Shown here one piece after another: positions 22,790-58,400 of a stretch of 64,000 nucleotides of DNA (the first letter of the stretch is position 1; each line of letters starts with the position of its first letter). This DNA is from Cavenderia fasciculata (taxonomy: Eukaryota > Evosea > Eumycetozoa > Acytosteliales > Cavenderiaceae). The position numbers and the translations under genes are program-made. Location: NCBI RefSeq assembly GCF_000203815.1, contig NW_004457723.1, positions 1,550,001-1,614,000 on the forward strand, read 5' to 3'. The notes under the pieces are model-generated. The model searched no databases and had not been told where the DNA came from. It saw only the letters and a program-made list of their open reading frames with translations.

Positions 22790-23490
22790 TTATTCGAAAA
22801 TGGTTCTATTGTAAGCAGATTTGAATAATAGACGATGAGATAAACTAAAGACTGATAAAGTTTCAGAGTCTGATTCCATTTCATTCTCGAGGAATTCGTA
22901 ATCGTCAACACCAATTTCATTTAGGGCTTCATGAATTTTGGGCAGCGAGGATTTCTTGAATCCAATATTGTCAACCCATTCCACGAATTCTTGGTAACTT
23001 TGGATTGGAGTTCGTTGCTGGCGTCGTTCCTCAGCGTTGTTCCAAATGAGATTAAAATGGTTTTGAGACAAACGAGATGAGAATTTAGATTGAATACCAT
23101 TCCCATCTTCGTCCATAAATGCAAACAAAATATCAAAAGTGTCTATAGAATTGCTTTCGAGATCCATGATAATTTGGTCGGCAATATTGTTTTCATTTGG
23201 AAGGTATGCTCTGATCCAATTAAATATATCTTCATTTCCGAAAACCTTGGGTCTTTGTTGACATCGTGTCTCGGCATCTCTCCAAATATAGTTGAATTTG
23301 GCTGCTTTCAAACGAGATGAGAATTTAGATTTTATCTTCTCGAGATCCTGGTCCATCGCCGAAAACAACTGTTCAAACGTGTCAATGCCTTCTGTTTGTA
23401 GATCTGAAATGATTTCATCAATACAGGCATCATTTTTGAGGGTATCTTTGATCCAACCAAAGAGCTCTTCATTTTTAAATATTAAAGTGG
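22790..23490 (-). other. Two-and-a-half SAM-like helical repeats at the giant's C-terminus
   Basis: The end of gene A holds two copies of a roughly 77-residue unit. Copy 1 runs from FKNEELFGWIKDTL through IDTFEQLFSAMDQDLEKI to FSSRLKAAKFNYIWRDAE. Copy 2 runs from FGNEDIFNWIRAYL through IDTFDILFAFMDEDG to FSSRLSQNHFNLIWNNAE. A third, more divergent unit follows (SYQEFVEWVDNIGFKKSSL, VDDYEFLENE, LSVFSLSHRLLFKSA). The W-at-start, I-D-T/D-D-Y-x-x-L/F and final S-x-R-x-x-x pattern resembles SAM domains, which polymerise or bind partners. Confidence 0.6.
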
Positions 23491-26400
23491 CTCGCTTGAC
23501 AAGTGGTGTGGATTGCAGATGACTTGATTTGGATGATAAAGAAATATCTTGTTGTTGGTTGGTCAACGTTGTTTTATATCCTTGGATAAAAATTTTACTG
23601 TTGGGTTGGGAACTTAATTGTTTCTTTGGAGGATTGTATGTTGGACTTTTCAATTTCTCTGGTGTTTCATTGACAATAGGTGTGACGGCTTCAGGGGTTG
23701 ATATCTTGTGCTCGTGTACTTTTTCATAAATCAACAACACACAATTTCTTGATAGACTCTCTTCAATGTTTGAAGTAATCACACTGTTAGTGGTTGCACA
23801 TCTAAGATGAATATCTTGTTCTCGATGTTTGATATATAATACTGGTTTTTCTTTGTTGCTCAGGTCCTTTTCACGACACTAGATAAAGTTAAGAATAAAT
23901 AATTGGCCACTGATTTGATTTTAAATATTTGATTGTTATATACATACTAGAATTGATTGAATATTATACTCATAAATGATTCCAGAGGAATTATGGTATT
24001 CATCCAATTTAATAGTCTCTTGATATTGTAAATGATGTTTTTCCTTTTCATTATTATCTCTCTTGAAACTGACAAACAAATATTGTGGAGCTTCCATTAA
24101 TCGTTTGATTTGATTGACTGTCCCACATTGTTTGCAACTATAATATTTAAGAAAAGTATGTGTTAAAATATATATTCCTCATAGCCAATGATTTGATTAA
24201 CTTACAAGAATGTATTTGAACTTTGATCTTTAGCAATGTCTTTGATTAGATCTTGGACATTGGTATCTTGACGTAATGGTAATACTCTTTCAAAGAGCAT
24301 ACTTTCATTTCTTTGACTGTCTGGAACTGTTGCTTTACATTTACCACAAATCGATTGAATCTTTGCACTGTAAAGTTTCTTGATACCATTATCATTTTCC
24401 ATTTGAGCCAGTATTGACAATATTTGAATCAATAAATCACCTGGTAATGTAAATGTTACAATTGAGAATTGTAGATAAAGTTTAGAGATATCAATCGGAG
24501 ATGTTTGGTTCTTTTGACATCTTGACCAGAATCTTTGAAAGAGTGAGGAGAGTGGTCCCAAGTCTTTTTGTTTGGAGATCATCATTGGGATGTTGTGATT
24601 GGCATATCTGATCCAATTGAATAGACAATGAACAATGTCTACATTCTTGATTGGAAGAATTGGTCTGAGACTAAAATTGAATTCATTTTCAATGGCTTGC
24701 TCCTCTTCTTCCTCTTTGGTATCATCCTCGTCCAAGAAACAATAATTGTTATCATAATATTTGAAATTGAGTTCTGGATTTTTCTTTTCCTGCTCTTCTT
24801 CCCCTTCCCCTTGTTTTTCCTCTATTGTTAATACTTCTTCATCTGATTCATCGAGTTGTTGTTTGGTTTTCTCTTCCTCTTCTTTTTCTTTTAGTTTCTT
24901 TGTGTGATCGTTGAATTGAGTGATAAATGGTTCGTTGTATTCTTTGATTTGGTTTTGACTGTTTTGAGAATCCAAATAGAGAATTGAAAGGATTTCATGT
25001 AATGTTCTCATAAAGTATGCATAGTATGACATTGGAAGAGTTGGTGATGTCATCTCTTCAACTTTGATGAAATCCAATGGCGTACTTGAGTTGTTGATAT
25101 GTGAGAATAAGAGTTTGAGGTGATGGTCTGGTTGTGACTTTTTGATATCATTGATGCATTCTTGAGAACATAAATCTTGAACAATACCTTTGAGATATTG
25201 GATACCTTTGTATATCTGTAGTCCACCACCACCACTGATGGCTGTAATATAATAATTCTTCATCTGATTTAAGTGATCGATGAAGTCTGGATTTGGATCA
25301 GTTGGTTCTTTGGTTACATTTGAGTACAAATAACCATAGGAGAGATATCCTTGAATTACAATGTCTGCCAATGTCTTGATGTTGTTGATCTTAATGCTCT
25401 CCAACAATTTAGTGATTTGGGATGGGATGTTGGTGTTGTCAATTCCAAACTTTGAGTTGAAATGCATGATTGGAAGACCGATATCTTCAGCATCCTTTTC
25501 CTTGTGAACCAATCGAGTAATGGTTGATACCAAACTATTGGCAAATGATTCCAACTTGACTGAACTCAATTTAGATCGACATGTTGCTGTGATTGGAGCA
25601 AAGATGGACACTTCTATTTCATGAGCATAAATCCTTGATTCCAATTGATCTTTCATATCTATCAAGTTTTTGATTGGTTCTGGAACGAGTCGAGAGTGTG
25701 GAAGCTTTTCAATGGTTTGATCTTTGGATTCAGTAACTCTTTTGAATGGGAATTCACCAGTAAAGTTCTTGAGTTGTCGACCAGTACTCTTTCCAGATGC
25801 AAATTTGTAGATCAACTTTTGTTGAATGAGTGCCAAGTTTGGATGGAAATTGGTTCGTTGGAATTGGTGGTAATGAGAGACTGATTCGATGAGGAACTTT
25901 TGATAGTCTGCAACTTCAAAGTTGGATCCCAACAAGAGATAGTTGTCTCCATAGTCGAATGGTATTTCACCAATATCCATTGTTTGCAATCTATCTGTCA
26001 TTTTTTCGAGAATAGATGCAAATAGGGCTGACTTTGGAGCAATAGTAATCTTTGATACAACCTTTCCTTGGGTATCGGTCATCCAATTGTTAATCAGTCT
26101 AATAATTTCACCACCTCCATTTTTAAGCTCTGGCATGTTGATTAGTTGACTGACTAGTGTGGTATCATCGATTGGTGGAATGATCTTTTCGTATTCTGGA
26201 CGAGCACGACAACCACCTTCTGAGAACATTGAGATGTCTGGTGATTTCAATCCAACTTGATTTCAATTTGTTCCATGATTTGGTCATTTCTTCAATGTTG
26301 GATTCATCTTCGATATTTTGATTCTTGAGATATTCTATACATTCCGAGATTGTATTGTTTGTATAATTCTCTGGTAATCTTCTTGCAAACATTTGATAGA

Positions 26401-29400
26401 ACAACTTGAGGAAACGAATCAGATTCTTGAAATATTTGCTGATGCAAATAGCTGATACATTCTTTGTGAAATACATTAACAAGTCCATATCCTTGGGTGA
26501 CCCGTCTGTTTGACTTTCTTCAATAACAAACTGATTGACCAAGTTGTTAAAGATTGATTGGTATTCATAGAGTGGTGATGAAAATACGTTGGTGAGGTTT
26601 TGACGAATTGAGGCGATGAGGCTGTTGGCAACATAACCTTGGAGACGATCTGCTTTGAGTTGTGCGTATTGTGATCTGACATTCTTGATCATTTCAGTGA
26701 GATAGTTTTCATAGACGACCACTTCAGTGTGACCTGCAAAGGTTGACTTTTTATGAGGAGCACGTGAGTCGTAACAATCATTCCAAATGCTGTAGAGCAA
26801 CTCAGACACGAAATGGTCAGCTTCGATCTTGTCGTCGATGATTTCCTTTGTATTAATGATGTGGCTGAACGATGTTAATGCACGGGAATGAATATAGTCA
26901 ACCAACTTTTTGTGAGAGGGTCCACCAAATTTAGGTTCGAAAAAGTCATCACCGTTGACAAAATGACGTTCTTTTTTGTTGATCAACTTTTCGTAAACTC
27001 CTTCATCGCAAATTGAAACATACCATGCAAACGAACTCCAAAAAGTGACACCAACCAAGATTTTGTTGAGGTAATTGTTATTCATACAATCAGCTTTGGG
27101 TTCGATACCAATCTCGTACTGCATACCACAGTCTCTGAACATACCATCACAGGCAGGATAATATTCCCCAGCGACCAAGAATGGGTTATTGTCAACCATG
27201 TGGTAGAGATATGAATTGTTGTTTGAACCAATGGCAATGGCAACACTATTGACCCATATATGTCTGGCTGATGTATCTTGAGGTGAATCATCCTTTGTCA
27301 TGAGAAGTCTGTCAAACACGACAGTTGAATCAAATTGTGCGACAAGAATCTTGTTGAAAAGTGGAGTATATTTGGCAAGTGAGAGTTTATCTATGACTGA
27401 TTGTTTGAGTTGTCGTTTGATGAATTGGGTTTGAGGTGCTTTTTTTTCTTGATACATTTGATATGATATCAAAAAGAGAGACATTCTAAAGAATCCTTGT
27501 TGTTTAGTTGTTCCACTGTTGTGTGCCAATACTTCATTGAATGCATCCAATGAACAATCACAAACTGATTTCAATATCTTGTTGTAAACAATACCATCTG
27601 GTGAGTCTGGGTAATATACAAATGGTAAGAGACCTAGATTTGGAATGTTTTCAGCAGTGATATGGAATTCAGCCAATCCAAGTAGTTCAAGGAGTTTTTG
27701 GTTTCCGACAAGCTGAATCAATGTCGACTCATTTTGGATCTTGTTGAAAAAGAATATTCTATTCCAAATGCAACTGATTTGTGCTGTCTTTTCTTTGGTG
27801 TCCTCCAAATAAAGTAGGTCTTTGATAATTTGACCAAATGCTTTGTTCTCTGTTAGATTGAGACCTTCGACAAACGTATCCAATGATGATTCTTTGGCCA
27901 ACATGCTTGTAAATACTTCTAAATTAGTGGTATTGAGTGCAAGAAGTTCAATCTTTGACATTGCATCTGTCTTTTTACAGAGATTGAGCCAATGGTCAAC
28001 CAGTTCTGATTGTTTGGTGTCATCGAATCGTACTTTGTGTTCTTGAACAAAGTTGTAATAGATTGCATCGATCAATGGTGGGTTTCTTGGATATTGATTA
28101 AACTCTTCAATGTTCATCTTGAAGAATGCAAGAACTTGATCTGAAGGAATGAGCATGTCTGTTGATGTTGTAAATTCTGTGCTCTGTGATGAACATAAAG
28201 AAAGCATCACTGGATTGGCTTGGATCTCTAGATTGACAAACTTGGCATTGATTAGCTCTCTGTAATGTGTTTTGAGAGCTGGAATTGGTCGATGGAATGC
28301 AATGATATTACATAACCAACCAAATGGTATCTTTTTGAGATAATCTCTGTGTTGTTCAAATGAACCATCGATATTGATAATGCTGAGGAAATCTGTGAGG
28401 ATGGACTCTGAGTGAGATAAAGGTCCGATAACATCCAAATAACAACTAATATCAAATGAATTAAAGTTGTTTGAGAATTGGGTTGTGATTTCGAGGAGAC
28501 ACTTGTCCAACAATGTAATTGGTCTGACTGAGTTATAGATATGTTTCAAACGATCTGGAATATCGATATCATCAGCAGTCATTGCGATGTTCATTACCAA
28601 TTGATATACCATCGACAAGTATACGGCTTTGAGTTTGTCTTGTTTGTCCAATGTCTTGATCAATGATTCCAATGAAACTCGATTAAAGAGATCTGTCATT
28701 GATGACGCCCAATTCGATGTCCATTCTACAATATTATTTGGATCAATTGTTTTACCTTTAACAACATAATCGTAGATGATATCTATTGTTATTTGAGAGA
28801 ATGTTGATTTGATGGTCTCTGTGTTCTTGAGGTTTTTAGCAGTCAGTTGGTTGATGATCTTGTTGCCTGGTGATAGTTGTAAGAGTGGAGTGGTCATATT
28901 GTTGACAAAGTTGATGGTTGATGATCCAAAGTGATGTGCAACTGTGTATTGCAAGATACCAGAGTGCTTGACTGAGAATAAACTCTCCATTACTGCAATG
29001 AGTGATGAATCATTTCTGTCAATGTTGAGTGTGTACTTTATAAAGTCTGATTGATAAGCCATCAAAAGATTGTTATCAATGTATTCGACAACCCTTCCAA
29101 ATGGATCTTTCTTGACACACTTGACAAATAGATCATAGACGATGTCGATTTCAGGATCATTGCTTATTGTCGATTGTTTTTTTAGATTAGTTGATCGGTG
29201 GAGTACCTTTTCGAATAGTGATGAAAGGATTTGTGCAATCCAATGGTATAACGGAATAGATGTGTTGAGATCTTTGGATGGTGAACGAGAAAGAAGGATT
29301 GGTTCGTATCTTTGAGCGATATTGGATGATATCTTTGGTAGTTTGATACATTTGATGATTTCACATACCAATTGGCTGCTTGGTTCATCAAGTGATTCGA

Positions 29401-32400
29401 TTGATGGATATGATTGATAATTGGTCACCAATTTGAATACTTGTGAGATGACTGGATAGAAGTATGATTCCAATGAACTTTTGATTGAATCGATAAATGA
29501 ATGTGTCAACTTGCCAGTGAGAATCAAATCGGAAATGTTGGAGATAATCGTCATTAAAAGATCGTCTTCTGACCATTTGTTGGTGAATGATGTGACAACT
29601 GCTTTGTACCAAGATGAGTTTGCTCTGAATAGGTTCTCGATCATTTCACCACGACATTTAGATTCAAGGTAGAATAGTCTATGGTCATCCTCCATACCAA
29701 GGTAGTTGTTATTGCTTGCCAAGTTTGAGACAAGACGCAATTGAGTAAAGAACATTGATTCGAATGTGTCATGTAATGAAGTGGGATCTATTGGATAATC
29801 TAATCGATAAGCAGATGACAACCATGATCTGATGTTTGGATCCCATTCCATCAAATCTGAATCAATCTTGACTCCAAATGAATCGATATACATGTATTCT
29901 GTATCATTGAGGAAGATACTATTCAATTTGGCTTGATTTGACAATGAGAATTCAACTGGATAATGACAAATAGTCACCATAATCTTGGAGGATTGAGAGG
30001 TATCAAATTGTTCGTTGATAAAGTTGACTTGGTGTTGGTTGATTGATTCCATGTCTGCAATGACCAAACATATCTTTTGTCGGTCATCTTTGTTAAACTC
30101 GTTGATCATATCTTGACATTGTTGACTTGTCTTGATTGATGTCAGTTGAATGATTTGGAGTGTTGCCAATTTGTCAATCTCGAGTACTTGTTTGTCTTTC
30201 TCGGTTATAGACTGTAACAAGATATCATAGAATGATTTCATTGTTTTGTCAGATGCGATATCTTTGAGATGGTGTAATGTCAATGAAGATCGAGTGTACA
30301 AGATCCATCGATTGGAAACATTCTCGTTTTTGACAAACTTTTTGGAAAAGAGATCAGTGATGAAATGGAAGAGGTTAAAGTGTTCTTGACGAAGAAGGAA
30401 CTCTTCCACATATGATTTGGGCATCGATAGACATCTGAATACACTTTCAGGTCTTGCAATTTGTAATAATTTCCAGTTGAAAAGTCGGAATTCAAAATGA
30501 TCAACAGAGTTGAATGTGTTGGGTAGTTGAGCAACACCAACCAATGTATCAACTCGTTGTGGTTGGATGTTGATGGATCCAGATTCATAGAGTTTCTTGG
30601 CAATGGTGTAGATCAATGATGGGATGGTTCCAGTCTCTGAGAATCCACAAAGAAGTGACTCTGATGATCCAGTATGGAATTCGTTGACAAAGTGAGAGGC
30701 GGATGTCTTCATCTTTTCAAAGTATTCAATATGTTGTGGAAGGTTTTGAGAGATATAGTGGTCAACCATTGTGTTGATTGAAAGATGATACTTTTCAAAT
30801 CTGTTTAACCATGGTAATGGTGTTTGGGGAAGTCGAGATTGTGGCAAGTGGACAATAATCTTAAAGTCTGAATGTACTTGGCAGAATACTGTATGTGTAC
30901 CAAATGATACATTGGCCATTGTCAAGATCTTATCGTCATGTGGCATTTTGGTAAAGTAACGATTGAATACATCATAGAAACATGCATCAATCGATTGAGT
31001 ATTGACCAACACAACAGTTTCACCTTCTGACATTTCATTCTTGATTTGAGAGACAACATCGATCAAACTGCTGGTTTGTGTGTCGTTTTCGAATCCACCA
31101 ACTCTGATGACCTTGTGTTTGATACCTAATTCCTTGAGTACCATGAGTGATGATTCATTCTCGGTTGGATCGATTAACATGATGTATCTGAATGGACATG
31201 TTCCTGGATCTTCTGTTGGTTGTAACTTCTCTTGTAATGATTCTTGTATTCTGGTGATCGTGTTGTCATTTCTGTCATAGTCAGCATTGATAAATTGTTT
31301 TTGATTGTGGAAAGCCATTTCATCCATAAACATAGAAATGATTTTCTTCATCTGATCGGGTGGAACACCACCAAAGTTACGTTCGATACTCGTTGCCAAT
31401 ACTTGTGGACTGAGATAGTTGTTGTTTTGATGCATTCCTCTTGCCAAGTGATGTAAAAAGTAAACAAAATCTCGTTGATGGAACATATCTGGTTTGGTTG
31501 ATTTGGCAAATGTGTTGACCTTGTTGTAGGCGGAGCAGAGAGCTTTGGAAACGTCGATTTGATTGATGGTATTTTTATCCTTGAACAGACATCCTTTGAC
31601 CAACATCATCTTGTCATCATTGGAAATGGTTTGTGGGTGCATGAGCATCATCATACGACTTGTTTTAGCAGCATCGAGAATACGATTTGAAAGAATGATG
31701 ATTGATATCTCTGCTTCTGATTGATCAATCTTTTTTGCCAAATTATCGAGATAGTCGTGCATAATCTTCATGGGTGAGTCAAATTCATTGACAAGACCTG
31801 CTTCATCAAAGAATGCTGTTGCTCGTTTACCACCAGATATGTTGTACACCTTTTGACGGTTGATAGCATTTTCAAAGTTGTTCTTGATCTCTATATCGGT
31901 GGTGTGTGGTGTGCATTGGTAACGGAATGGATCTGCACCAACCATCAATCTCCAAGGTGATTCATTTCCTTTGATGGTGGTGGCTGTGTTGTCATTCTTG
32001 TTGGCATTGATATTGTTGAGTACAATAGTGAATGACAGTGTCTTTGAAGAACCTGGTGGTCCAACGATACAAATCGGAATACAAGTGTTGATTGATACGA
32101 CAATAGTAAATATATTGAGTTTGAGTGTATCTGTCAATGCAATACCAGCTGGTAGAGTAGTATATTCTGAACTGCAGAATGAGTTGATGACCTTGTTAAA
32201 CGCTCCTAAAAACCCAATGTTCTTGATACCAACTTTTCTAGGTGCCTCTTGACTTAAATATTCATTGAAACACCAAAGCATAGTCGAACGTGAAGCTGGA
32301 TCAACACGAATATAATAAGATAGTGCCATACTGACGATCATTGACCACCAATGAATGATTTCTTCTGAATTGTTTGTGTCTCCAATAGCAACATTGAGAA

Positions 32401-35400
32401 TGGATATACCAACTTGATGAGTTCTAAAGAAACTGTAAAGATCAATGACACGATAGATATCACGGATCGATACATGTGTACGTGCTTGTTTGACCTGTCG
32501 AAGTGCATCTTGTCCAACAAGAATAAATCGTTTAAATTGATCCATGGGACTTTTGGCTGTTACAATGCGTAATCTTCGACCAATGGTGCTGCACACATCT
32601 TTGATCATTGGACAAATATTTGGACGGAGAGTGAACAATGATTCGAGGAATGGTGTTTCATTGTCTGTTGAAAACTCTCCATAACTGAGTGTGAGGTGAC
32701 GCATCGATGGTGGTATGGGTTTGACAACAAATGATTCTGTCGTCGATTTGGTATCGATACCAGTGTGGTCCATAGTCAATTTGTTGTCGGCACTCGTGTT
32801 GTCCACCAATTTCTGGTCATCAGAACCTTGGACCTTTTTTGGTTCATTCATTGCACCAACCCAGAATATGTTATCTGGAATGACAGTACAACCATCCAAT
32901 ACACCATCAGTAAATACTTCATTGATCAATGCCAATGTATCATCTGGTGCTGTGTTGAATTCATCGATAAATACAACCAACTTGAGATCCACTCCAATCG
33001 ATTCGAGAGGGTTTGCCTGCTCGATGATTGATTTAACCTTGTCAATGAATTGATCAGAACTATACTTTTGATGCATGATAATTCTTTCAAACAGATTCTT
33101 AAAGTTCACAGTCATGATCTCTTTGATGCATTGGAACAACTGATCCTTTTTGGTGATGATACCTCCCGATGGATTGGACTTTAACTCGGCAAGGAGTGCC
33201 TTTTGAGAGGAATTGATATCGATGAGCTGATTCTTTTCAAGTATACCAATAACCAACTTTTCCATTCCTTGACAAAATTCTAAAAATGAAAATTGTTTCT
33301 TTGGAACTGAGTCGATTTCCTGATCTGGGTCATAGTCTGCAATATGAGTAAGGAATTCCAGTACCATCTCGAGTGGAGGACTACCTGGAAGAAGCTTTAA
33401 TAGAATCCTTTCCTTTCGCTTGTCAGACATTTTAACATTTTTCTTTTGCTCGTCTGTCAATTGAACCTCATCATCTACTTTGGCAACGACTGTATACTTT
33501 TTGAGCAAGTCAGGGAACTGTTCAATGTATCCGTTGATATATTCTTTGATATCATATGCGATATCTGGAAGAACCATCGCATTGATGAGAAGAGAGTAGA
33601 AGAGAAGATTGTGAGTCTTTCCAACACCAGTGTCACCAGTCAGCACCAATGATTTGGTATTCTTTGCCTTGCAATGGAGGATGATCAGACGAACTGCAAA
33701 GTCTGCTGTGATGACATATTTAAACCGTGTACAAAGTGAATAAATAAGATTGGTCTTGTCAATACCAAATGCTGTTGCAATGGCCAATCTAAGGGATGTT
33801 GTATCGTTTTTGACCTTGTCGTATGTGATCAAAGTTTCAACACGCTTTTCCAAGCCATAGTCTGATGGCCCAAGTGCAATGTAGTTGACAGTACATCCAT
33901 CCATGAACCTACCAGACTCTTCATCGTATGCTTGCATTTCTTGTTTTGATCTTGCAGTGATGAGAGGAGGATTGGCCCAAATACTCGAAGTTGAAGAGTA
34001 AATTGGATCTGCTAATTTGGCAGATTCGTAAACAAAGAACTGGAAGAGTTCATGGGGAGGTAATAATGAGGATTGATTCAACAATTCTGGTTCTTCATCC
34101 ACAGTTGGAATATTGATGTAAAAGGGGTAATAGAGTTTGTTGAGGAACTCTAATCTCTCGCTGAGCAATTTAAAGAATGTCTTTTTCTGTGTCAAATACA
34201 AAATATCCTTCAAATACTTTGGTTTGTAGTCAAAAGTATTCAATACACGCATCACAAAGTTGATAAAGTCTGGTTCTTTGACTGATAGTGCCTTTCTTTG
34301 ATCTGGTAACTGGTAATAACCGAGTGGTTGTTCGTGGCAGGCAAGACATATGAGTTCGGCATCACCAATCTCCCAATCTGTCATGGGTTGGAAGTAATGC
34401 ATCGACAAGTTGAAGATGAGTGATACAGTATCGAGGAGGTATTGTTCGTGTGATTGGTAGTGAGCATCTAACAAAGGGTCACCAATCTCGACAAAGATAG
34501 CCAATTTCAAGTGATCAGATACACTTACAAAATCTTTGATACCATCGCCAAATATGTATCCTTGTGTGATCAATGGATAGATCGTTGTGATGAATGCTTC
34601 AAAGTCACAATAGGGTGATAGTTTAAAGTGAACTGTGACCGTTTCTTGGCCTTTGTTTGAACGATTTGCATCCTTAACCAACCTCTTGAGCTTTTTGATA
34701 AACCCTCCGATTTGATAGTTTGGACGAACATGAACTGTGATGAACTGTGATGCAATCTCTTGTCGTTTTGAACGAATAAAGAAACTCTTTCCAGTGCCAC
34801 TCGGTCCAGATACAAGCTGAAGGCTGTGTACTCCTCTTCGATTATCAACCCATTCATCTTTGAATGGTTGCCAATTCTTTTCAAACGATGTTGAATTCAG
34901 TTCAATAAACGAGAATAGGTCGAGCAATGTGGCATCTTTGGTAGCAGTGATGATATAAATTCGAGTCAAATTCTTGAAGTCACCAGAACTGTACTTGTCA
35001 GAGAGCCAGTTGAGCAATGATATCTTGTCTGATGGGATACCAACGAGGAATATACATGAACCTCTGTACTGTTCAACAATCTTTTTAAAGATTTCAAAGT
35101 CTTTTGAGAGAGATGATCCATAGAACAATTGTGATGGATGTGGTAGAACAAACCCATTCAATTGCATGAGACAGTTGTACAAGTTGTTTTTGTCTTGTAA
35201 TGGAACCAGAATTGGTCCTCTCTCTGAAATGTCTTCCTCCCATGATATTTCTTTCTCTTTCGACTTTTTATCCAAATAATCGATCAACTTGGTAAAGAAT
35301 TCGTTTGTAAGTGGAAGCTTGTTGATATCTTCAAATAGATTCAATTCGATCAATGCACTAAAGATCCCTTCTTGTGTTGTTAATGAATATGGATAGCAGT

Positions 35401-38400
35401 ACTTGATAAATGGCAAGAGAGCGCATGCAAGTTGGTTTACTCGTTCAGTGAAAAACTCTTGTTTGACAGTGTCACTTGCATTGTCTACAATCTTGAATCC
35501 CTTCAAGAAGTAGTTATAGTTGAATATCAACGATGATATTCCTTGTATCTTGAGTAACCACAATCGACTGGGAAGAGTATTGATTTCATCCAACCAATCA
35601 TCAAGGTCCTTCTGCAACTCTGATGCTTTTGCTTGAAGGCTAGCCAAGCAATGCGAATCGACTTTGATACTAATCATCCCATCAAGATATTTTTGATGAT
35701 ATAAACGATCGAGGTTGGTGTGCAACTCGTGAATGGAACGGAGTTGGATGACAATATTTTCAAAGTGATCTGCATGTTGCATTTGTTCTCCTTTTGAGAA
35801 AAACTTGAGACCTTGAACAAAATCATTGACTGCCTCTTGAGTGTGTTCCTTTTTCATTGCTGCATTGTCGATACCAGTGGCAATCAACCATCCAGAAGAA
35901 CCACCGACAGATTTGGAGGTGGTTGATCTAAATTCCGAGCCTTCAAGAATAAGATTGACCGATGCTTTGATTGATCCAGAATCATATCCACCAGCTGATG
36001 CATACAATCCAATGATTTGTGGTAAATTGGTTCCAAATGATTTTAAATGTAACAGTGATTTGGCAAAGTTGGATCCTTCTGTCAACGATTTGACCTTTGA
36101 ACAAATATCAGTGATACTTTTAAGTGTCACTGGTTTGGAGAGATACAATTCTACAAAACTCTCTATCATCTGAAGTGTGTGGACCGATGCATTCATCAAT
36201 GCAGAGTTATAAGTGTCTGAAAGGTGATTGGTTGTGAGAATCTGATTCTTTGTTGAAAAGTTGTTCTGAACCTCTTTGATATCTTTTCCAAATTGTGAAA
36301 AGAATTGTAAAATCGATGGATTGATGTATTCAAAGATTACCAATTCGTTGTATTCCAATCCTGCTAATAATGGCTTCAAAGATTCCAAATTACTCTTGCT
36401 TTGACCCAATGTCATCTTTTCTTGATCAATATCTTTCAAAAATTCGTGAACATTGGCTATGTCTTTATCCTTGTTGGTGATAACCAGATAATTGTTTGTT
36501 TCGAAAAAATTATTTAAATATTTAATATTATCTCGATAACCAAACAATGACTTGGCTCGTTGAATAAAATCTTTCAATTGACTTTCTAATTCTAAATTGA
36601 ATGGCTTGTGAGGCTCAAAGAATAAATACCTATTTTTGAAAAAATAAATAAATTAATATTTTATAATAATATTAATATTTTATATTAATGTTTTTTTTTT
36701 TTTAATTATTTTTAATACATACATTGATTTTAATTCTTTTTGTAAATTGATAGTACTTTCTTCCACGACCAACGATTTGAATATATTATTCAAAGGAATT
36801 TCACTCTTGGTGTCCAACAATTGCTTCATAAATGTTGAAACTTCTTTTACAATGTCATCCATTGATCTTCCATCGTACGACATTGCATTATCATAGTAAT
36901 AAAAGATAATGTTAAAAAGATGATGTTGATCGGTATCGTTACTACTATTGGCACTGCTGCTGCTGGCAAAGTGACAAAGGAATTTAATGGTAGCATCAGT
37001 TTCTACTCTATACTTTGTGCCTTTGGTTTTAGTTGTAATTAACTCCTTTGTTGTTGCGATGATTTGGTCGAGTGGTTCATGGTTTGATTCATAGTCTCTT
37101 TTAACTTGAATAGGAATATGAAGTTGATCGAGATAATCAACCAATCGGAAAAGACCATTCAACTCGTAGACATGCTTGTAATATCGTTCACTTATGACCT
37201 CTGATGGTTCAATCTTTTTGTTGACAACTTCCAAAATAGTTTTAATGATAGTATATTGTTGACTAAAAGAGTCTTTCCATCTTAACTTCATCTTGTTGGC
37301 AATATCATCTATAGTTTGTATAAACTAAAAAAAATAAAATAAAAAATTAATATTAATATTATTTTTTAACAATATTCCTAAACTAAATACTAATTATTTA
37401 TAATTATTAATTATTAATTAAATACCTTTGTTTTTTGGGTATTATAACCCTCGACCTGTTCATTCCAATGGTGATCAGTGTTAATCAACATTAATCCAGT
37501 GTGCCATTGGGCGACTATTATTTTGTGTTGTAAATTTAGTTTTTCAAGTTGATAAGTTGCCAATAGAATATAAATGAGTGTTGGAGGTACTGTTTGTTGT
37601 AGATCTGAGAATATCTTTGAAATGTTAACATTCTCTAAACTTTTCTCGTTGGTGATCGTTTCACATATAGTTTTGAAAGTTGTAAACTGAGAGGACGATA
37701 GTTTGGTGTCAGGAGGGCCTCGATGAAAAGATTCCTCAACCATTGAAATCTTTTTGATTAACTCTGATGATGTAGTGATTGTCTTTGGAACGGGGATGAG
37801 ACACTGAGATCGCTTCAAAGATAAATCGGCCAATTCCTCGACTCTCATACGCTCGATGATCTTGTTTTGGAGAGTGGAAAAGGTGGTGTTGTCATGATGA
37901 GAAGGCGAGAATAACTCTTTTCGATCTTGTGGTGGGGGAGGTGATGTTTGATCATCAATCGATTGGGCCAAATTGTTTTCCAGACTCTCTAGAAACATTG
38001 AACAGTTGGGATTTAATATGAGAGGAATAAGTAGTCTCAAACCTTCATCTTGTTCTTTTCCTCCTTTGCCTGTTGTTGCCACTGGCAAAACTTTATCTGA
38101 AACCAACTTTAACAATCTGTTTTGTATTGTCGTGCTTTTGTCTGTACTCTCTTTGATGAAACGTTCTGGGTCTAGACGGAACAGTTGGAAAAGGCAGTTT
38201 TGAATTCCTCCAATTGTTGCTGTATCTTTGAAATCTTTTTCATTGTTGAGGAGTTGGCAATAAATATGGAATCTGTAAACAAGTGATTTGACTTGTTTTG
38301 GAACGATGGCAATTTGATCATGTAGTACCTGTATGTAGAGGTGTGGTTGTATCTCCTGTAAGATTTTGTTAAATAAATCGACATGTGGTTTATAATCACT

Positions 38401-38871
38401 TTTTATATCCTAATAAATAAATAAATAAATTAATAAAATATTGATTAATAATTTTGTTCAAAATAATCATGAAACTGAAAACATACATCTTCAAAAATTT
38501 TAAATTGTTTGATAAATGATTGTATCAAAATTTTTGTGTAGGCTAGAGTGATTCCAGAAATCTCTCTCTTTAGGTAATATAATACTGAGAAAAGAATGTT
38601 ATTCTCTTCGGCAAAATGCAAAGTGAAACTAAAGATTTCTGGGTCAATCTTTAGAAATGGAATACCCAAGCAGAGAATGATATGAGGGTCTTGCCAAGGC
38701 AAATCAATTGATCTTTTGATGAAATCTTTCAAGATTGGAAGAAATTCGTTTCCATTTTGCCATGGTCTAAAATTGCGCGTCATACGTAGATAAAAATGAT
38801 GAAATATCGATTGTCTGTTATTAATTCCATTTTGACCACAATGACTATATAATTAATAAATAATTAATCAA

Positions 38872-38910
<39 letters not shown>

Positions 38911-40269
38911 ATTATTTGATTTTAAATTATTTTCACAATTGATAACTACATACTTGTCAATTTTCATAAGTACAAAAAAGGAAAGCATTTCACCAAGCTC
39001 TTTTACGATTTTATCCAAAATGTATGGCTTGTTCACTTGATCTAACAAATTGTCATTGGATGCATTTATGAGGTAGAGAAATTTATCATTGTCTGGTAGA
39101 TTAGCATTTAGAGGGTCGAGTAATGACATGACCAACTGTGACAATGGTTTGCTCTCCACTTGTTGTCCTTGTGGTGGTGAGGCTAGTTTCTCGGGTGTTG
39201 GTCCGATTGGAACATATTGGATTTTATTTGAAATCTTTGCTCCCAACTCTGAAATCTTGAATAAATCGAGGTCTCTCTTGCTCATTTCCTTGAATTGAAC
39301 AACAATGTGATATTCTATTTGATTATAGGAGTCTGTGAAATCTTGAATATTCTTTCCACTCTCTAAATCAAAAAACCCGGGTAGACTGCTCACTCTGAAT
39401 GTTATGTCAGCTTCATTGGCCATTAGGATTTGAGAGATTTGAGAGAATCCCACGACGATTCTCTTTCCTTCTGTCTGCCACTCCAACTCTCTCTTGCCAA
39501 AGTCGATCAAACATTTTTGATCGCCCTCACCTCGGAATCTGTTGATTTGAATTGTGTTGACCGGTAGATCCAAGTTGTTGGTTGATGGTATTGGTCTTGA
39601 CCCTCCCAATATTTTTTGAATGTTGAGTGAATCGACTGAGGCGACTTTATAGTCTTTAAAGGAGTGAAAAAGGTTCATTGGTTCGAGGACAGACTTGAGA
39701 TTCTGTTCTTGAGAAACCTTTTCGTTGAGCTTGTGGGTATAGTAACATCCACCGTTTGCTTTAACCAAAAACGTAACAAACACCGGAATGGCAGGGACTC
39801 CAATCACAGTATATGATTTCTTTGACAAGGGTATTTGATAAGTGACGACGGTGGTTGGATCAAACTTGATTTTTTCTGTCGAGATCTGTTTTCCGATGGA
39901 CATTTGAAAGGTCGGAACACCATCCTTGACATCGTCGACAATAATCTTGCCCAATGATACCAAAACAATGCAATTTTCTACATCGGTGGCATTCTCCAAA
40001 TAAATGTCAAACGGCATTTTGTCATCGACTTGATTATCTTGTTGAATTGATTTCTCTTGTTTTTCTTCTTCTTTTTTATTATTATTATTATTATTATCTT
40101 CTTGTTGTTGCTGCTGCTGCTGCTGCTGCAAAGCTGATGAATCTGTGGAAGCATTTGAATGTGATGATGGTGATGATGATGATGAAGTGTCGGTGGTTTG
40201 TATATCTGCATGATCAGTCTCTTTTGCTGACCCTTTGTTATTATCAGCTGTCACTGATGAAGAAATCAT
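22790..40269 (-). CDS. Giant RNF213/mysterin-like AAA+ protein with USP-like C-terminal region (gene A; frameshift at about 26222)
   Basis: Seven exons: 40269-38954, 38844-38487, 38409-37426, 37324-36723, 36629-24206, 23948-24137 and 22790-23878. Without one extra base they encode about 5,653 residues. The N-terminus is Ser/Gln/Asn-rich, then a probable beta-sandwich (VLVSLGKIIVDD...) and helical exons. The 12.4-kb exon carries P-loops at about residues 1697 (GPSGTGKS), 2087 (GDTGVGKT) and 2612 (GPPGSSKT). Walker B-like segments lie at about 2310 (VVFIDEFN) and 2695 (TAFFDEAG). The second and third P-loop modules and the following helical body resemble the motor of RNF213, a giant ubiquitin-system ATPase. 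I see no RING cysteine pattern. The C-terminus instead resembles a ubiquitin-specific protease, followed by SAM-like repeats. A +1 insertion near 26222 breaks the frame relative to gene B; all else is open. Confidence 0.85.
23600..24705 (-). other. USP (ubiquitin-specific protease)-like region of giant gene A
   Basis: Read across exons 5-7, the order matches a USP catalytic fold. First is a Cys-box-like element VHCLFNWIRYANHNIPMM (C-x-x-N as in CYxNS), followed by LGPLSSLFQRFW and LPGDLLIQILSIL, in the place of the usual QxDAxEFLxxLL helix. Next is a zinc ribbon (ICGKC ... FCKQCG, formed across a splice), then APQYLFVSFKR, the usual hydrophobic-KRF element. Last is the closing strand NCVLLIYEK. 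The catalytic His motif (GHY) is not recognisable, and an acidic Glu/Asp insert precedes the Cys box. It may be a pseudo-protease or a highly divergent one. The assignment rests on motif order only. Confidence 0.5.
38871..38911 (+). repeat. (ATAA)n tetranucleotide repeat in intron 1 of giant gene A
   Basis: About ten copies of ATAA lie within the first intron of gene A, close to the 3' splice site in transcript sense. It is a simple microsatellite. Confidence 0.95.
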
Positions 40270-49373: not shown

Positions 49374-49414
<41 letters not shown>

Positions 49415-52400
49415 TAATCAAATTGATATAAAACCATTTGAAATTACCTTAAAAAATGAAACAGAACAAGAGTGTATTGTTTTGGTATCATCAGATATAA
49501 AGGCCAAGATTATAAATCATGAAGAAGATGGTGCAGGTGTTCAGACATTTTACATGTCCAAAGGAAAACAGGCACTGAAAGAAAAAGTCAAGTTTGATCC
49601 AACCACCGTCGTCACTTATCAAGAACACCTAAACAGGAAATCACATGTTGTCATTGGTGTCTCAGCCATTCCAGTATATGTTACATTTCTGGTTAAAGCA
49701 AAAGATGGATGGTACTATGTTCACAAGCTCAACAAAAAGGTTGACAAGAAAACTCTAAAAAAGACTCTCGAGTCTGTCCTCAAACCAAAGCATCTCAACC
49801 ACTACTTTGGAAGAGTTACATCAGTCGATTTACTCAACATTCAACAAGTATTGGGACAAACAACTCAACTACCAAGCAACAACTTGGATCTACTGGTCAA
49901 CACAATTCAAATCAATAGACACTTTGGTACTAAAGGCCCTCAAAGATGTTTGATTGACTTTGTCAATAGAGTATTGGAGTGGTACACAGAAGGAAAGAGA
50001 ATCGTCGTTCAATTCTCTCAAATCTCTCAAATCTTTATCCAAGAGAGTGACAAGAGAATGACATTCCAAGTGAATGATCAACCCATGTTTTTCGATTTAC
50101 AGAGTGGAAAGAGTATGAAAGATTTTACCGACTCTAAGCAAATAGAAAACCATTATGCTCAATTCAAGGATATCAGCAAGAGAGACATCGATATATTAAA
50201 AAAGTCGGAATTGGGAGCAAAGATTTCAAATAACCTCCAATATGTCCCAATCGGACCAACACCCGATAAACTAGCTGCACCACAAGGATTATTCCCTTTT
50301 AGAAAAGATGTAGAGAGCAAACCATTTTCAGAGTTGGTCATGTCATTGACTGACCTAAAGAGGAATCCTCATCTAACAGTTGATCATTATTTTCTCTACC
50401 TCAAAAGGTCATTTATTGACAATTTGGTGCAAGAGGTAAACAAGCCACACATTATAGCAAAAATATTTGAGCTTGAAGAACGTATGCTTTCCTTTTTTGT
50501 ACTTATCCACCTTGACAAGTATGTAGTAGTGAACATAATCCAAACCATAATTGCATCATCATTAATACAAATTATCATTATTTTTTTTTTAAAATCTATG
50601 TAGTCATTGTGATAGTGGAATTCACAACAGAGAATCAATATTTAGCAAATTCCATGATCAGATGATGCAAATTAAAGATTTTAAACCATGGTTGTATGAC
50701 AAGAGTTTTCTTCATATCCTGCAGGATTTCATTGAAAAGTCAATCAGATTTAAAGAGTGGAATCAATGGCAAGACCCTCATATCATTCTCTATTTGGGTA
50801 TTCCATTTTTAAAGATTGACCAAAAAGTTTTTAGTTTCACTTTGCATTTTGCTGAAGTCAAAAACATTCTTTTTAACAACCAAAATGTTATTTCTTATAT
50901 CAAGAATCAAATCCAATCTGGGAAAGCAACAATACTCAAAGATCTCTTACAACCTTTCATCGAACTATTCCAAATTTTTGAAGATGTATGTACTTTTTAA
51001 ATGATCCAAATGTTTTTGCTCGATTATTAATATAAATATTGCTATTTTTTTATCAATTTATTAGGATATCCTAGATGATCGTCAACAACATGTCAATTTG
51101 TTCATTGAAATCATTAAAGTGATACCACAATACAAAGTGTTGGTAGAGCAACTACATGATCAAATTGCCATCGTTCCAAAACAAGTCAAATCACTTGTTT
51201 ACAGATTCCATATTTATTGCCAACTTCTCAACAATGAAAACGATTTCAACTCTAAAGCAATTGAAGGAATTCAAAACTGCTTTTTCCAACTGTTCCGTCT
51301 CGACCCAGAACGTTTCATCGAAGAGAGTACAAACAAAAGCGATGAAATCAAACAAAGATTATTAGAGTTGGTTTCGAGTAAAGTTTTATCAGTGGCAACA
51401 AGCAAAGATGGTTTGAGACAACTTACCGATCTCATATCAAAACCCAACTGTTCAAAATACCTAGGGTGTCTGGTCGATGGAAAAAATGCCAAATCGATTT
51501 ACACTCAATCATCGTCACAAGATCGAGAAAAGTTATTCACGTTTCCTCATGAAAACAATTCAATTGTCTCCACACTCCAAAACAATATTGTGAACCATCT
51601 AAAGATCGAGGAAATGGCAGATTTATCTTTGAGATGCTCTCATCATTCCTTCCTCTATAGTCCAAAGACAATCCCTACAACATCGGATCTAATCAAAAAG
51701 ATTTCAATGATTGAAGAGGATTTCCGTCAATACTCTCCTAAAACCAAACTATCGTCCTCTCGGTTTACAGTTTTCAAAACTATATGTGATACGATCAGCG
51801 AGAAAAGTTTGGAGAAGGTTTATCTTTCAAAGATATTCTCAGATCTACAAACAGTACCTCCAACACTCATTTATATTCTATTGGCAACTCACCAACTCGA
51901 AAAACTAAATTCACAATATTGTGGTGATCGATCGACGCAGCATCAAGATATAACAGTTGCCCAATGGCACTTGAAATTAATGTTGATTAATACTGACCAA
52001 GGTTGGAATGAAGAGATCGAGAGTTATAATGCCCAAAAAACAAAGGTAATTAATTAATTTAATTAATTTCACTACTCGTAATATTAATTTTATTTTATTT
52101 TTAGTTTATACAAAAAATAGAAGCTATTTCAAACAAGATGATATTAAGATGGAAAAAGTCTTATCATCAAGAACAATATACCATCATTAAAACTATTTTG
52201 GAGGCTGTCAACAAAAAGATTGAACCATCAGAGGTCATAAGTGAACGATATTACAAACAGGTCAACGAGTTACATGGTCATTTCAGAGTGGTTGATTATC
52301 TCGATCAACTTCATATTCCTATTCAAGTTAAAAGAGACTATGAATCAAACCATGAACCACTCGACCAAATCATCGCAACAACAAAGGAATTAATTACAAC

Positions 52401-55400
52401 TAAAACCAAAGGCACAAAATACACAATCACGAATGATGATACGATAAGATTCCTTTGTCACTTTGCCAGCAGCAGCAATAATAGTAATAACAATACTACT
52501 GATCAACAACATCGTATGTTTGACATTATCTTTAAATATTATGATAATGCAATGTCGCAAGATGGAAGATCAATGGATGGCATTGTAAAGCAAGTTTCGA
52601 CATTTATGAAACAATTGTTGGACACCAATAGTGAAATTCCTTTGAATAAAATATTCCAATCGTTGGTCGTGGAAGAAAGTACTATCAATTTACAAAAAGA
52701 ATTAAAATCAATGTATGTATTAAAAATAATTAAAAAAAACATTAATATAAAATATTGATATTAATTTATTTATTTTCAAAAATAGGTATTCATTCTTTGA
52801 ACCTCAAAAACCATTCAATTTAGAATTAGAGGTTCAAGTCAAAGATTTTATTCAACGTGCCAAGTCATTGTTTGGTTATCGAGATAATATTAAATATTTA
52901 AATAATTTTTTCGAAACAAACAATTATCTGGTTATCACCAACAAGGATAAAGACTTTGCCAAAATTAACGAATTTTTGTATGACATTGATCAAGAAAAGA
53001 TGACATTGGGTCAAAGCAAGAGTAATTTGGAATCTTTGAAGCCATTATTAGCAGGATTGGAATACAACGAATTGGTAATCTTTGAATACATCAATCCATC
53101 GATTTTACAGTTCTTTTCACAATTTGGAAAAGATATCAAAGAGGTTCAGAACAACTTTTCAACAAAGAATCAGATTCTCACAACCAATAACCTTTCAGAC
53201 ACTTATAACTCTGCATTGATGAATACATCGGTCCACACACTTCAGATGATCGAGAGTTTTGTAGAATTGTATCTCTCCAAACCAGTGACGCTTGAAAGTA
53301 TCACTGATATTTGTTCAAAGATCAAACCATTGACAGCAACCAACTTTGCCAAATCACTATTCTGCTTACAATCATTTGGAACCAATTTACCACAAATCAT
53401 TGGATTGTATGCATCAGCTGGTGGATATGATTCTGGATCAATCAAAGCATCGGTCAATCTTATTCTTGAAGGTTCAGAATTTAGATCAACCACCTCCAAA
53501 TCTGTCAGTGGTTCTTCTGGATGGTTGATTGCCACTGGTATCGACAATGCAGCAATGAAAAAGGAACACACTCAAGAGGCAGTCAATGATTTTGTTCAAG
53601 GTCTCAAGTTTTTCTCAAAAGGAGAACAAATGCAACATGCAGATCACTTTGAAAATATTGTCATCCAACTCCGTTCCATTCACGAGTTGCACACCAACCT
53701 CGATCGTTTATATCATCAAAAATATCTTGATGGGATGGTTAGCATCAAAGTCGATTCAAATTGCTTGGCTAGCCTTCAAGCAAAGGCATCAGATTTGCAG
53801 AAGGACCTTGATGATTGGTTGGATGAAATCAATACTCTTCCCAGTCGATTGTGGTTACTCAAGATACAAGGAATATCATCGTTGATATTCAACTATAACT
53901 ACTTCTTGAAGGGATTCAAGATTGTAGACAATGCAAGTGAAACTGTCAAACAAGAGTTTTTCACTGCACTAGTAAACCAACTTGCATACGCTCTCTTGCC
54001 ATTTATCAAATACTGTTATCCTTGTTCATTCATCATACAGGAAGACATTCATGATGCATTAATCGAATTGAATCTATTTGAAGATATCAACAAACTTCCA
54101 CTTGCAAACGAATTCTTTACAAAGTTGATCGGTTATTTGGATAAAAAGTCTCAGGAGGAAGATATTTCAGAGAGAGGACCAATTCTGGTTCCATTACAAG
54201 ACAAAAACAACTTGTACAACTGTCTCATGCAATTGAACGACTGTATTCTACCACATCCATCACAATTGTTCTATGGATCATCTCTCTCAAAAGACTTTGA
54301 AATCTTTAAAAAGATTGTTGAACAATACAGAGGTTCATGTATATTCCTCGTTGGCATCCCATCAGACAAGATATCATTGCTCAACTGGCTCTCTGACAAG
54401 TATAGTAGTGGTGACTTCAATAATTTGACTCGAATTTATATCATCACTGCCACCAAAGATGCCTCTTTGCTCGACCTATTCTCGTTTATTGAACTGAATT
54501 CAACATCATTTGAAAAGAATTGGCAACCATTCAAAGATGCATGGGTTGATAATCGAAGAGGAGTACACAGCCTTCAGCTTGTATCTGGACCGAGTGGCAC
54601 TGGAAAGAGTTTCTTTATTCGTTCAAAACGACAAGAGATTGCATCACAGTTCATCACAGTTCATGTTCGTCCAAACTATCAAATCGGAGGGTTTATCACA
54701 AAGCTCAAGAGTTTGGTCAATGAATCAAGTCATTCAAACAAAGGCCATGAAACGGTCACAGTACACTTTAAACTATCACCTTATTGTGACTTTGAAGCAT
54801 TCAGCACAACGATCTATCCATTGATCACACAAGGATACATATTTGGTGATGGTATCAACGATTTTGTAAGTGTATCTGATCACTTGAAATTGGCTATCTT
54901 TGTCGAGATTGGTGACCCTTTGTTAGATGCTCACTACCAACCACACGAACAATACCTCCTCGATACTGTATCTCTCATCTTCCACTTGTCAATGCATTAC
55001 TTCCACCCCATGACAGAGTGGCAGATTGGTGATGCCGAACTCATATGTCTTGCCTACCACGAACAACCACTCGGTTATTACCAGTTACCAGATCAAAGAA
55101 AGGCACTGTCAGTCAAAGAACCAGACTTTATCAACTTTGTGATGCGTGTATTGAATACTTTTGACTACAAACCAAAGTATTTGAAGGATACTTTATATTT
55201 GACACAGAAAAAGACATTCTTTAAATTGCTCAGCGAGAGATTAGAGTTCCTTAACAAACTCTATTACCCCTTTTACATCAATGTTGCCGCAGTGGATGAA
55301 GACAGAAAAGCATCGTATCAATCCTCATTATTACCTCCCCATGAACTCTTCCAGTTCTTTATTTACGAGTCTGCAAAATTAGCAGATCCAATTTACTCTT

Positions 55401-58400
55401 CAACTTCGAGTATTTGGGCCAATCCTCCTCTCATCACTGCAAGATCAAAACAAGAAATGCATGCGTACAATGAAGAACTTGGTATTTTCATGGATGGATG
55501 TACTGTCAACTACATTGCACTTGGACCATCAGACTATGGTTTGGAAAAGCGTGTTGAAACTTTGATCACATACGACATGGTCAACAACGATACAACATCC
55601 CTTAGATTGGTGATTGCAACAGCATTTGGGGTTGACAAGACCAATCTGATTTATTCACTTTGTTCCCAATTTAAATATGTCATCACAGCAGACTTTGCAG
55701 TTCGTCTGATCATCCTCCATTACAAGGCAAAGAATACCAAATCATTGGTGTTGACTGGTGACACTGGTGTTGGAAAGACTCACAATCTTCTCTTCTACTC
55801 TCTTCTCATCAATGCGATGATTCTTCCAGATATCGCATATGATATCAAAGAATATATCAACGGATATATTGAACAGTTCCCTTACTTGCTCAATAAGTAT
55901 ACAGTTGTTGAAAAGGTAGATGATGAGGTTCAATTGACAGACGAGCAAAAGAAAAATGATAAAATCGAAATGTCTGACAAGCGAAAGGAAAGAATACAAT
56001 TAAAGCTTCTACCAGGTAGTCCTCCACTCGAGATGATACTGGAATTCCTTACTCATATTGCAGACTATGACCCAGAGGCCGAACTACAACAAATGGTTGT
56101 CTATCAACCACCACCACCTCAAGTTGAAGAGAAACCAGAGGAAATCAACTCACCAAGAAAAGTCGAACCACCTGCAATTCCAGAAGTCGTTGTTCCAAAG
56201 AAACAATTTTCATTTTTAGAATTTTGTCAAGGAATGGAAAAGTTGGTTATTGGTATACTTGAAAAGAATCAGCTCATCGATATCAATTCCTCTCAAAAGG
56301 CACTCCTCGCCGAATTAAAGTCCAAGCCATCTGGAGGTATCATCACCAAAAAGGATCAGTTGTTCCAATGTGTCAAAGAGATCATGACCGTTAACTTTAA
56401 GGATCTGTTTGAAAGAATTATTATGCATCAAAAGTATAGTTCTGATCAATTCATTGACAAGGTTAAGTCAATCATCGAGCAGGCAAACATTCTCAAATCG
56501 ATTGGAGTGGATCTCAAGTTGGTTGTATTTATCGATGAATTCAACACAGCACCAGATGATACATTGGCATTGATCAATGAAGTATTTACTGATGGTGTAT
56601 TGGATGGTTGTACAACTATTCCAGACAACATATTCTGGGTTGGTGCAATGAATGAACCAAAAAAGGTCCAAGGTTCTATTGACCACACCGGCGTCGATAC
56701 CAAATCAACAACCCAATCATTTGTTGTCAAACCCATACCACCATCGATGCGTAACCTCACACTCAGTTATGGAGAGTTTTCAACAGACAATGAAACACCA
56801 TTCCTCGAATCATTGTTCACTCTCCGTCCTAACATTTGTCCAGAGATCAAGGATGTGTACAGCCCCATGGATCAATTTAAACGATTTATTCTTGTTGGAC
56901 AAGATGCACTTCGACAGGTCAAACAAGCACGTACACATGTATCGATCCGTGATATCTATCGTGTCATTGATCTTTACAATTTCTTTAGAACTCATCAAGT
57001 TGGTATATCCATTCTCAATGTTGCTATTGGAGACACAAACAATTCAGAAGAAATCATTCATTGGTGGTCAATGATCGTCAGTATGGCACTATCTTATTAT
57101 ATTCGTGTCGATCCAGCAACTCAAAAACGATCTTTTGTCTTGAATCAATTCAACAAATTTTTAATGGAAGAATCACCGGCTGAAATCGGTCTCAAGAAAA
57201 TTGGGTTTTTGGGAGCGTTTAACAAGGTCATCAACTCATTCTGCAGTTCAGAATACACTACTCTACCAGCTGGTATTGCATTGACAGATACACTCAAACT
57301 CAATATATTTACTATTGTTGTATCAATCAACACTTGTATTCCGATTTGTATCGTTGGACCACCAGGTTCTTCAAAGACACTGTCATTCACTATTGTACTC
57401 AACAATATCAATGCCAACAAGAATGACAACACAACCACCACCATCAAAGGAAACGAATCACCTTGGAGATTGATGGTTGGTGCAGATCCATTCCGTTACC
57501 AATGCACACCGCACACCACCGATATAGAGATCAAGAACAACTTTGAAAATGCTATCAACCGTCAAAAGGTGTACAACATATCTGGTGGTAAACGAGCAAC
57601 AGCATTCTTTGATGAAGCAGGTCTTGTCAATGAATTTGACTCACCCATGAAGATTATGCACGACTATCTCGATAATTTGGCAAAAAAGATTACAGAATCA
57701 GAAGCAGAGATATCAATCATCATTCTTTCAAATCGTATTCTTGATGCTGCTAAAACAAGTCGTATGATGATGCTCATGCATCCGCAAACCACTTCCAATG
57801 ATGACAAGATGATGTTGGTCAAAGGATGTCTGTTCAAGGATAAAAATACCATCAATCAAATCGATATCTCCCAAGCTCTCTGCTCAGCCTACAGCAAGGT
57901 CAACACATTTGCCAAATCAACCAAACCAGATATGTTCCATCAACGAGATTTTGTTTACTTTTTACATCACTTGGCAAGAGGAATGCATCAAAACAATAAC
58001 TATCTCAGTCCACAAGTATTGGCAACAAGTATCGAACGTAACTTTGGTGGTGTTCCACCCGATCAGATGAAGAAAATCATTTCTATGTTTATGGATGAAA
58101 TGGCTTTCCACAATCAAACACACTTTGCCAAAACTGTCAATGCAGTCTATGAAAGAAATGACAACACGATCACCAGAATACAAGAATCATTACAAGAGAA
58201 GTTACAACCAACAGAAGATCCAGGAACATGTCCATTCAGATACATCATGTTAATCGATCCAACCGAGAATGAATCATCACTCATGGTACTCAAGGAATTA
58301 GGTATCAAACACAAGGTCATCAGAGTTGGTGGATTTGAAAACGACACACAAACCAGCAGTTTGATCGATGTTGTCTCTCAAATCAAGAATGAAATGTCAG

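What the first reader, a model, noticed from the sequence alone, without database searches (positions are those of the whole stretch)
22790..40269. Giant RNF213-like AAA+ protein that ends in a USP-like domain and lacks a visible RING
Seen: three P-loops and two Walker B-like motifs in a roughly 4,000-residue exon, whose second and third modules resemble the RNF213 motor. No C-x2-C...C-x-H RING pattern follows. Instead the C-terminal exons show, in order, a Cys-box-like CLFN, a DAxEFL-like helix (GDLLIQIL), a CxxC...CxxC zinc ribbon, a hydrophobic-KR element and a closing hydrophobic-YEK strand, as in USP deubiquitinases, then SAM-like repeats. Known: animal RNF213 is an AAA+ ubiquitin ligase acting on lipid droplets and intracellular microbes. 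Inference: in this lineage the same motor carries a ubiquitin-removing or ubiquitin-binding module, which may bear on defence against ingested bacteria.
Basis: partly seen in the sequence, partly recalled or inferred. Interest (0 to 1): 0.85.

Follow-up and report, generated by a model that had tools for sequence, protein, structure and literature searches.

The report
RNF213-type motor with degenerate deubiquitinase domain
A social amoeba encodes a giant relative of the human infection-fighting protein RNF213 that lacks the parts which attach ubiquitin and instead ends in a domain shaped like ubiquitin-removing enzymes, apparently inactive here but with a complete active site in some distant relatives.

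The parts
22790..40269 (-). Gene copy 1, seven exons: 40269-38954, 38844-38487, 38409-37426, 37324-36723, 36629-24206, 24137-23948, 23878-22790; public model DFA_07460 (P0002, 5595 aa)
   Evidence: Splice sites and translation; the two spliced pieces agree with P0002 except for short intron choices of the public model
34784..34807 (-). P-loop GPSGTGKS, AAA2-type (first of three); a stretch LAIFVEIGD that follows was not tested as a Walker B
   Evidence: Pfam AAA_22 at this P-loop E 6e-8; AAA2 assigned by order only, against PMC7311170 (passages)
33614..33637 (-). P-loop GDTGVGKT, AAA3-type
   Evidence: the Walker B that follows aligns with RNF213
32954..32977 (-). Walker B VVFIDEFN, AAA3-type
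32039..32062 (-). P-loop GPPGSSKT, AAA4-type
   Evidence: aligned with GKPGSSKS of RNF213
31799..31822 (-). Walker B ATAFFDEA, AAA4-type
24943..26226 (-). Region like the RNF213 C-terminal domain, conserved in relatives (approximate limits)
   Evidence: Conserved in relatives ('mid'); protist relatives' profile against animal RNF213 prob 97, E 5e-11; coordinates
23705..24681 (-). USP-fold (pseudo-deubiquitinase) domain over three exons (24681-24206, 24137-23948, 23878-23705); P0002 residues 5012-5291
   Evidence: coordinates
22790..23473 (-). Three tail repeats (x-W-I ... I-D-T-F type), four predicted helices in one unit; SAM-like only by pattern
   Evidence: no structural match; coordinate
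49378..64000 (+). Gene copy 2, inverted, head to head with copy 1, running on past the window to about 66.98 kb; uninterrupted 4162-codon frame 52751-65237 holding motor, C-terminal domain and first half of the USP domain

Best explanation
The gene encodes an RNF213-family giant AAA+ protein of a protist branch without detectable RING or RZ finger, with a USP domain behind the RNF213-type C-terminal domain. Shown: motor homology, no finger found, USP fold of the model, loss of the GHY His box and of the first Asp in this species and the aligned dictyostelid-type relatives. Inferred: the ATPase core drives self-assembly on a membrane or particle, as in animal RNF213, and the USP fold no longer cuts ubiquitin but serves as a ubiquitin-reading or scaffolding module that places the machine on ubiquitin-marked surfaces. 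In relatives with a full triad the same module is probably an active deubiquitinase. The USP most likely joined the motor in an ancestor of this branch and decayed more than once.
Against: No ubiquitin binding was tested. The window's own USP segment does not ring with Pfam UCH, and the UCH search of the own genome (35 matches) has none in the window. The conserved Cys may be the catalytic one or the Cys about eight residues further on. P0016 and P0017 have His near the His-box place and Asp at the second position of DD (C-D-S), though they lack the Cys. The tree needs 8 changes of the USP label, so a single gain is not proven; 19 of the 40 rows of the clade have no confirmed USP, some of them short models. 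Copy 1 changes frame before the USP, so this copy might not make the domain. PMC10919355 (passages) reports activity claims for USPs without a normal triad (USP39, USP52), so 'inactive' is not certain.
Confidence: 0.6

Rival explanations
1. The domain is an active deubiquitinase in this species too, using the conserved Cys of HCLFNW with replacement residues for His and Asp.
For: The Cys is kept in 10 of 12 aligned rows; in 6 of these 10 its distance from the upstream RPIK-type motif is 10 residues, as from RGIK to the catalytic Cys in P0037 (counted by eye). Activity without a normal triad is claimed for USP39 and USP52 (PMC10919355, passages).
Against: The His box reads PVLY in Cavenderia and GTY, GIY, GSY, GLY and others elsewhere; no row has GHY; the first Asp of DD is Cys in all 12. 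Two rows lack the Cys. A low-confidence profile comparison puts the Cys at the later, non-catalytic place.
Confidence: 0.08
2. The USP fold is a purely structural or self-regulating piece (for example closing on the motor), with no ubiquitin contact.
For: Triad loss, and an invariant Cys (C253 of the model, at the place of the first Asp) and Trp (W27) in the 12 rows; pseudo-deubiquitinases acting as scaffolds are known (PMC10919355, passages).
Against: The whole USP fold is kept and dN/dS is 0.33, but neither separates reading from scaffolding.
Confidence: 0.25
3. The proteins are annotation chimeras of neighbouring motor and USP genes.
For: Most relatives are gene models, not transcripts.
Against: In copy 2 motor and first USP half share one uninterrupted 4162-codon frame; the same order recurs in 22 of 97 proteins.
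Confidence: 0.02
4. Copy 1 is a decaying pseudogene and copy 2 the working gene (compatible with the best explanation, which then rests on copy 2).
For: Frame change in copy 1 only; the public model bridges it with an 85-base intron of coding-like letters.
Against: dN/dS between the copies is 0.28-0.50 in the seven segments measured, which speaks for past constraint on at least one copy; a one-base difference may be a sequencing error.
Confidence: 0.3

Closest known systems
RNF213 (mysterin), animal AAA+ E3 ligase
   Same: Homologous motor with the same order of P-loops and Walker B motifs; C-terminal domain shared through protist relatives
   Different: No RING or RZ finger found; a USP domain follows the C-terminal domain
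USP family deubiquitinases (USP34, USP7, USP2, USP18; Pfam UCH PF00443)
   Different: His box and first Asp lost; fused to an RNF213 motor
USP39/Sad1, a USP long regarded as inactive
   Same: Second family in the profile search of PDB sequences; its His-box letters (GSYRIHV) resemble GSYSIHI of P0006; USP39 lacks the catalytic His and Cys (PMC10919355, passages)
   Different: USP39 is a splicing factor, no motor
USP15, which binds and deubiquitylates RNF213 in human cells
   Same: A USP acting together with RNF213 (PMC5343593, passages)
   Different: Separate protein in animals, one polypeptide here

Membership tests
RNF213 family | Homologous AAA3-AAA4 core | tested here: met
   E 1e-37 against solved RNF213
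RNF213 family | AAA3 and AAA4 with Walker A and B | tested here: met
   Motifs in order, aligned to RNF213 from the AAA3 Walker B on; pattern from PMC7311170 passages
RNF213 family | AAA2 that binds ATP but lacks Walker B | tested here: inconclusive
   P-loop present; Walker B absence judged by eye only
RNF213 family | RNF213-type C-terminal domain | tested here: met
   Indirect: protist relatives' profile prob 97, E 5e-11 (Cavenderia not among its rows); the window's 'mid' region matches dictyostelid relatives
RNF213 as an E3 ligase | RING domain | tested here: not met
   None by Pfam or pattern
RNF213 as an E3 ligase | RZ finger | tested here: not met
   the one RZ locus of the genome is elsewhere
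USP family (UCH, PF00443) | USP fold | tested here: met
   (predicted model)
USP family (UCH, PF00443) | Pfam UCH score above cut-off | tested here: not met
   No UCH row for the window's own segment nor in the window in the genome search; 6 of 12 aligned rows ring at E up to 0.1
Active USP deubiquitinase | Catalytic Cys | tested here: inconclusive
   Cys in HCLFNW, register ambiguous
Active USP deubiquitinase | Catalytic His and Asp/Asn | tested here: not met
   Cavenderia: PVLY for GHY, CA for DD; the relatives' profile lacks GHY opposite GHYCAY of USP18
Active USP deubiquitinase | Cleaves ubiquitin | not testable with these tools
   Needs an assay
SAM domain tail | SAM fold or SAM profile match | tested here: inconclusive
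   No Foldseek match for one unit; SAM_1 E 0.11 in 1 of 13 units and 0.029 in the P0010 tail; SAM named by Pfam in P0034 and P0037

The most novel reading that the evidence does not exclude
A branch of RNF213-type AAA+ machines works in reverse: it assembles by ATP hydrolysis on ubiquitin-marked membranes or particles and removes ubiquitin there (triad-bearing members), and dictyostelids turned this eraser into a ubiquitin reader. The fusion would also show that the RNF213-USP partnership seen in trans in animals (USP15) is ancient or has arisen twice.
Probability: 0.35. Interest if true: 0.9.

Novelty: new variant of a known kind. Interest (0 to 1): 0.74.

Why it matters
RNF213 is known as a ubiquitin ligase that coats intracellular microbes. 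A branch with the same motor but a ubiquitin-cutting fold in place of the ligase fingers separates motor from ligase in evolution and makes it testable what the motor does alone. The fusion supports, by the gene-fusion argument, a functional bond between RNF213 and USP enzymes. I found no paper on it: RNF213 with Dictyostelium, 3 papers listed, none about this by title and start of abstract; RNF213 with Amoebozoa, none; RNF213 with pseudo-deubiquitinase, none; wider listings showed nothing of the kind in titles and abstract starts. The library lacks most subscription journals and all preprints.

Tried and rejected
RZ finger hidden in the E3-shell region (GEYYPACDGMFRDCGM): rejected by eye on 44 matched stretches. 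P0035 as a further USP bearer: put by eye into a profile, then dropped because Pfam gives nothing. The first USP profile contained a wrong-frame translation of L001 and is discarded; P0046 first appeared there and was confirmed by Pfam. The comparison set held only RNF213-linked USPs (P0034, P0037, P0040, P0046), so its prob 88, E 3e-6 (second half of the domain only) is not against independent USPs. Register of the conserved Cys: not resolved. Searching Balamuthia's USP end for more giant fusions returned only itself. A search with P0037 gave 13 proteins not seen before; none shows a USP signal better than reversed controls; an earlier weak stretch in P0101 (0.0012 for one stretch) did not come back. 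SAM fold of the tail: not confirmed. Intron at the frame change: only GT-AG pairs with coding-like letters. Short intron choices of P0002 differ from mine. Rows not in the tree: P0021, P0046, P0057, P0082, P0088, P0098. Fold searches used only the PDB library, not the viral one.
Full report
Gene and coordinates. The finding lies on the minus strand of a window that is contig C7:1550001-1614000 of a 31 Mb genome. Translation and splice sites give seven exons from 40269 to 22790. The two spliced pieces agree, apart from short intron choices, with P0002, named by its source as DFA_07460 of Cavenderia fasciculata, 5595 aa. The large exon is 12,424 bases. In copy 1 its frame changes near 26.2 kb; no GT-AG pair there looks like an intron, and the public model bridges it with an 85-base intron made of coding-like letters.

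Second copy. A search of the own genome showed that the window holds a second copy, inverted and head to head, at 49378 to about 66980, 84-92% identical in DNA by segment. Its large exon is open for 4162 codons (52751-65237) straight through the place of the frame change and includes motor, C-terminal domain and the first half of the USP domain. This shows directly that motor and USP belong to one reading frame. A third, diverged copy lies on C21 (23-37% identity by segment); there the Cys of the CLFN motif is gone (by eye). dN/dS between the near copies is 0.34 (motor), 0.35 (before it), 0.49 (after the motor), 0.28 (C-terminal domain), 0.33 (USP), 0.50 (linker) and 0.46 (tail); dS is 0.09-0.15 except 0.40 in the linker.

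Motor. The exon matches RNF213 chains in the PDB sequence set at E 1e-37, from the AAA3 Walker B through AAA4 and beyond. The three P-loops and two Walker B motifs fit the RNF213 pattern described in PMC7311170 (passages); the AAA2 assignment is by order, and the absence of its Walker B was judged by eye. A profile of eight protist relatives (Cavenderia not among them) aligned with animal RNF213 in the C-terminal domain (prob 97, E 5e-11) and weakly in the stretch just behind the core (prob 45, E 2e-4); no other stretch aligned with confidence, the part that carries RING and RZ in animals included.

No ligase fingers. Pfam finds no RING or RZ on exon 1 and the large exon, the C-terminal exons and exons 2-4. 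A RING pattern rings in the two vertebrate proteins tried and an RZ pattern in one vertebrate and one bivalve protein, but neither in the window protein, P0006, P0034, P0037 or P0040; they also missed P0093, a ciliate protein with a Pfam RZ, so they are not exhaustive. The own genome has one RZ locus, on another contig.

Active site. In the 12 aligned rows no GHY is present: PVLY in Cavenderia; GTY, GIY, GSY, GLY and others in relatives; in P0016 and P0017 this place is a gap with His residues close by. The first Asp of the DD motif is Cys in all 12; the second is Ala, Thr or Ser in 10 and Asp in P0016 and P0017. The USP18 alignment puts GHYCAY opposite replaced letters. Ten of 12 rows keep a Cys in the HCLFNW motif; P0016 and P0017 have Arg. 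Whether this Cys is catalytic is open: in 6 of the 10 its distance to the RPIK-type motif is 10, as in P0037 (by eye), whereas a low-confidence profile comparison places it about eight residues downstream. No row has all three residues in place.

Relatives. By eye, P0046 has Gly for Cys but keeps His and Asp, and P0041 has Ser for Cys and no His. As a control, reversed sequences gave nothing better than 0.09 per stretch. The USP starts 696, 785, 780, 751, about 800 and 715 residues behind the E3-shell match in P0002, P0034, P0037, P0040, P0046 and P0041.

Tree. A quick maximum-likelihood tree of the motor with 91 of 97 rows, rooted on six animal proteins, puts all 21 USP rows in a 40-row clade (SH-aLRT 98); the sister group of four rows includes Naegleria; RZ-bearing rows lie outside. 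Nineteen of the 40 rows have no confirmed USP. The label needs 8 changes, so one gain with losses or incomplete models, or several gains, are all possible. Three SAM-bearing relatives (P0043, P0047, P0100) show no USP, which suggests that the USP sits between the C-terminal domain and an older SAM tail (inference). The tail repeats of Cavenderia themselves are not confirmed as SAM.

Mechanism. In animals RNF213 forms coats on microbes or vacuoles; this needs the ATPase in all three cases studied and the RZ finger for bacteria (PMC11549300, passages). USP15 binds RNF213 and removes its ubiquitin (PMC5343593, passages). By analogy I propose that the protist branch keeps the ATP-driven assembly and has the USP module as eraser (triad-bearing members) or as reader or scaffold (dictyostelids). 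Assembly, ubiquitin contact and a defence role are inferred; none was tested.

Novelty. The literature searches (listings with titles and abstract starts) gave nothing on such a fusion; the library lacks preprints and most subscription journals. I file it as a new variant of the RNF213 family, not as an E3 ligase, and as a USP-fold pseudo-deubiquitinase in this species.

Noticed in passing
window 49378-64000 (+), continuing to about 66980 on C7: Second, inverted copy of the whole gene, 84-92% identical by segment, with an intact 4162-codon frame; head to head with copy 1, about 9 kb apart.
   Followed up: yes
window about 26.2 kb: Copy 1 changes frame relative to copy 2; sequencing error or true mutation cannot be told apart here.
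   Followed up: partly
window 41091-44058 (-): Between the two copies lie ankyrin-repeat exons and an aldehyde dehydrogenase (E 1e-149); no inverted or direct duplicate of them showed in the window self-comparison.
   Followed up: partly
G000 C21:166073-179060: Third, diverged copy (23-37% identity by segment) whose USP-like region has lost the CLFN cysteine (by eye).
   Followed up: partly
G000 C1:1884753-1884908: The genome's only RZ-finger match, in a 977-codon frame on another contig.
   Followed up: no
C-terminal ends of relatives P0025, P0026, P0029, P0035: Where the USP sits in others, these motor relatives carry other modules (ankyrin-like and ubiquitin-like by eye).
   Followed up: no
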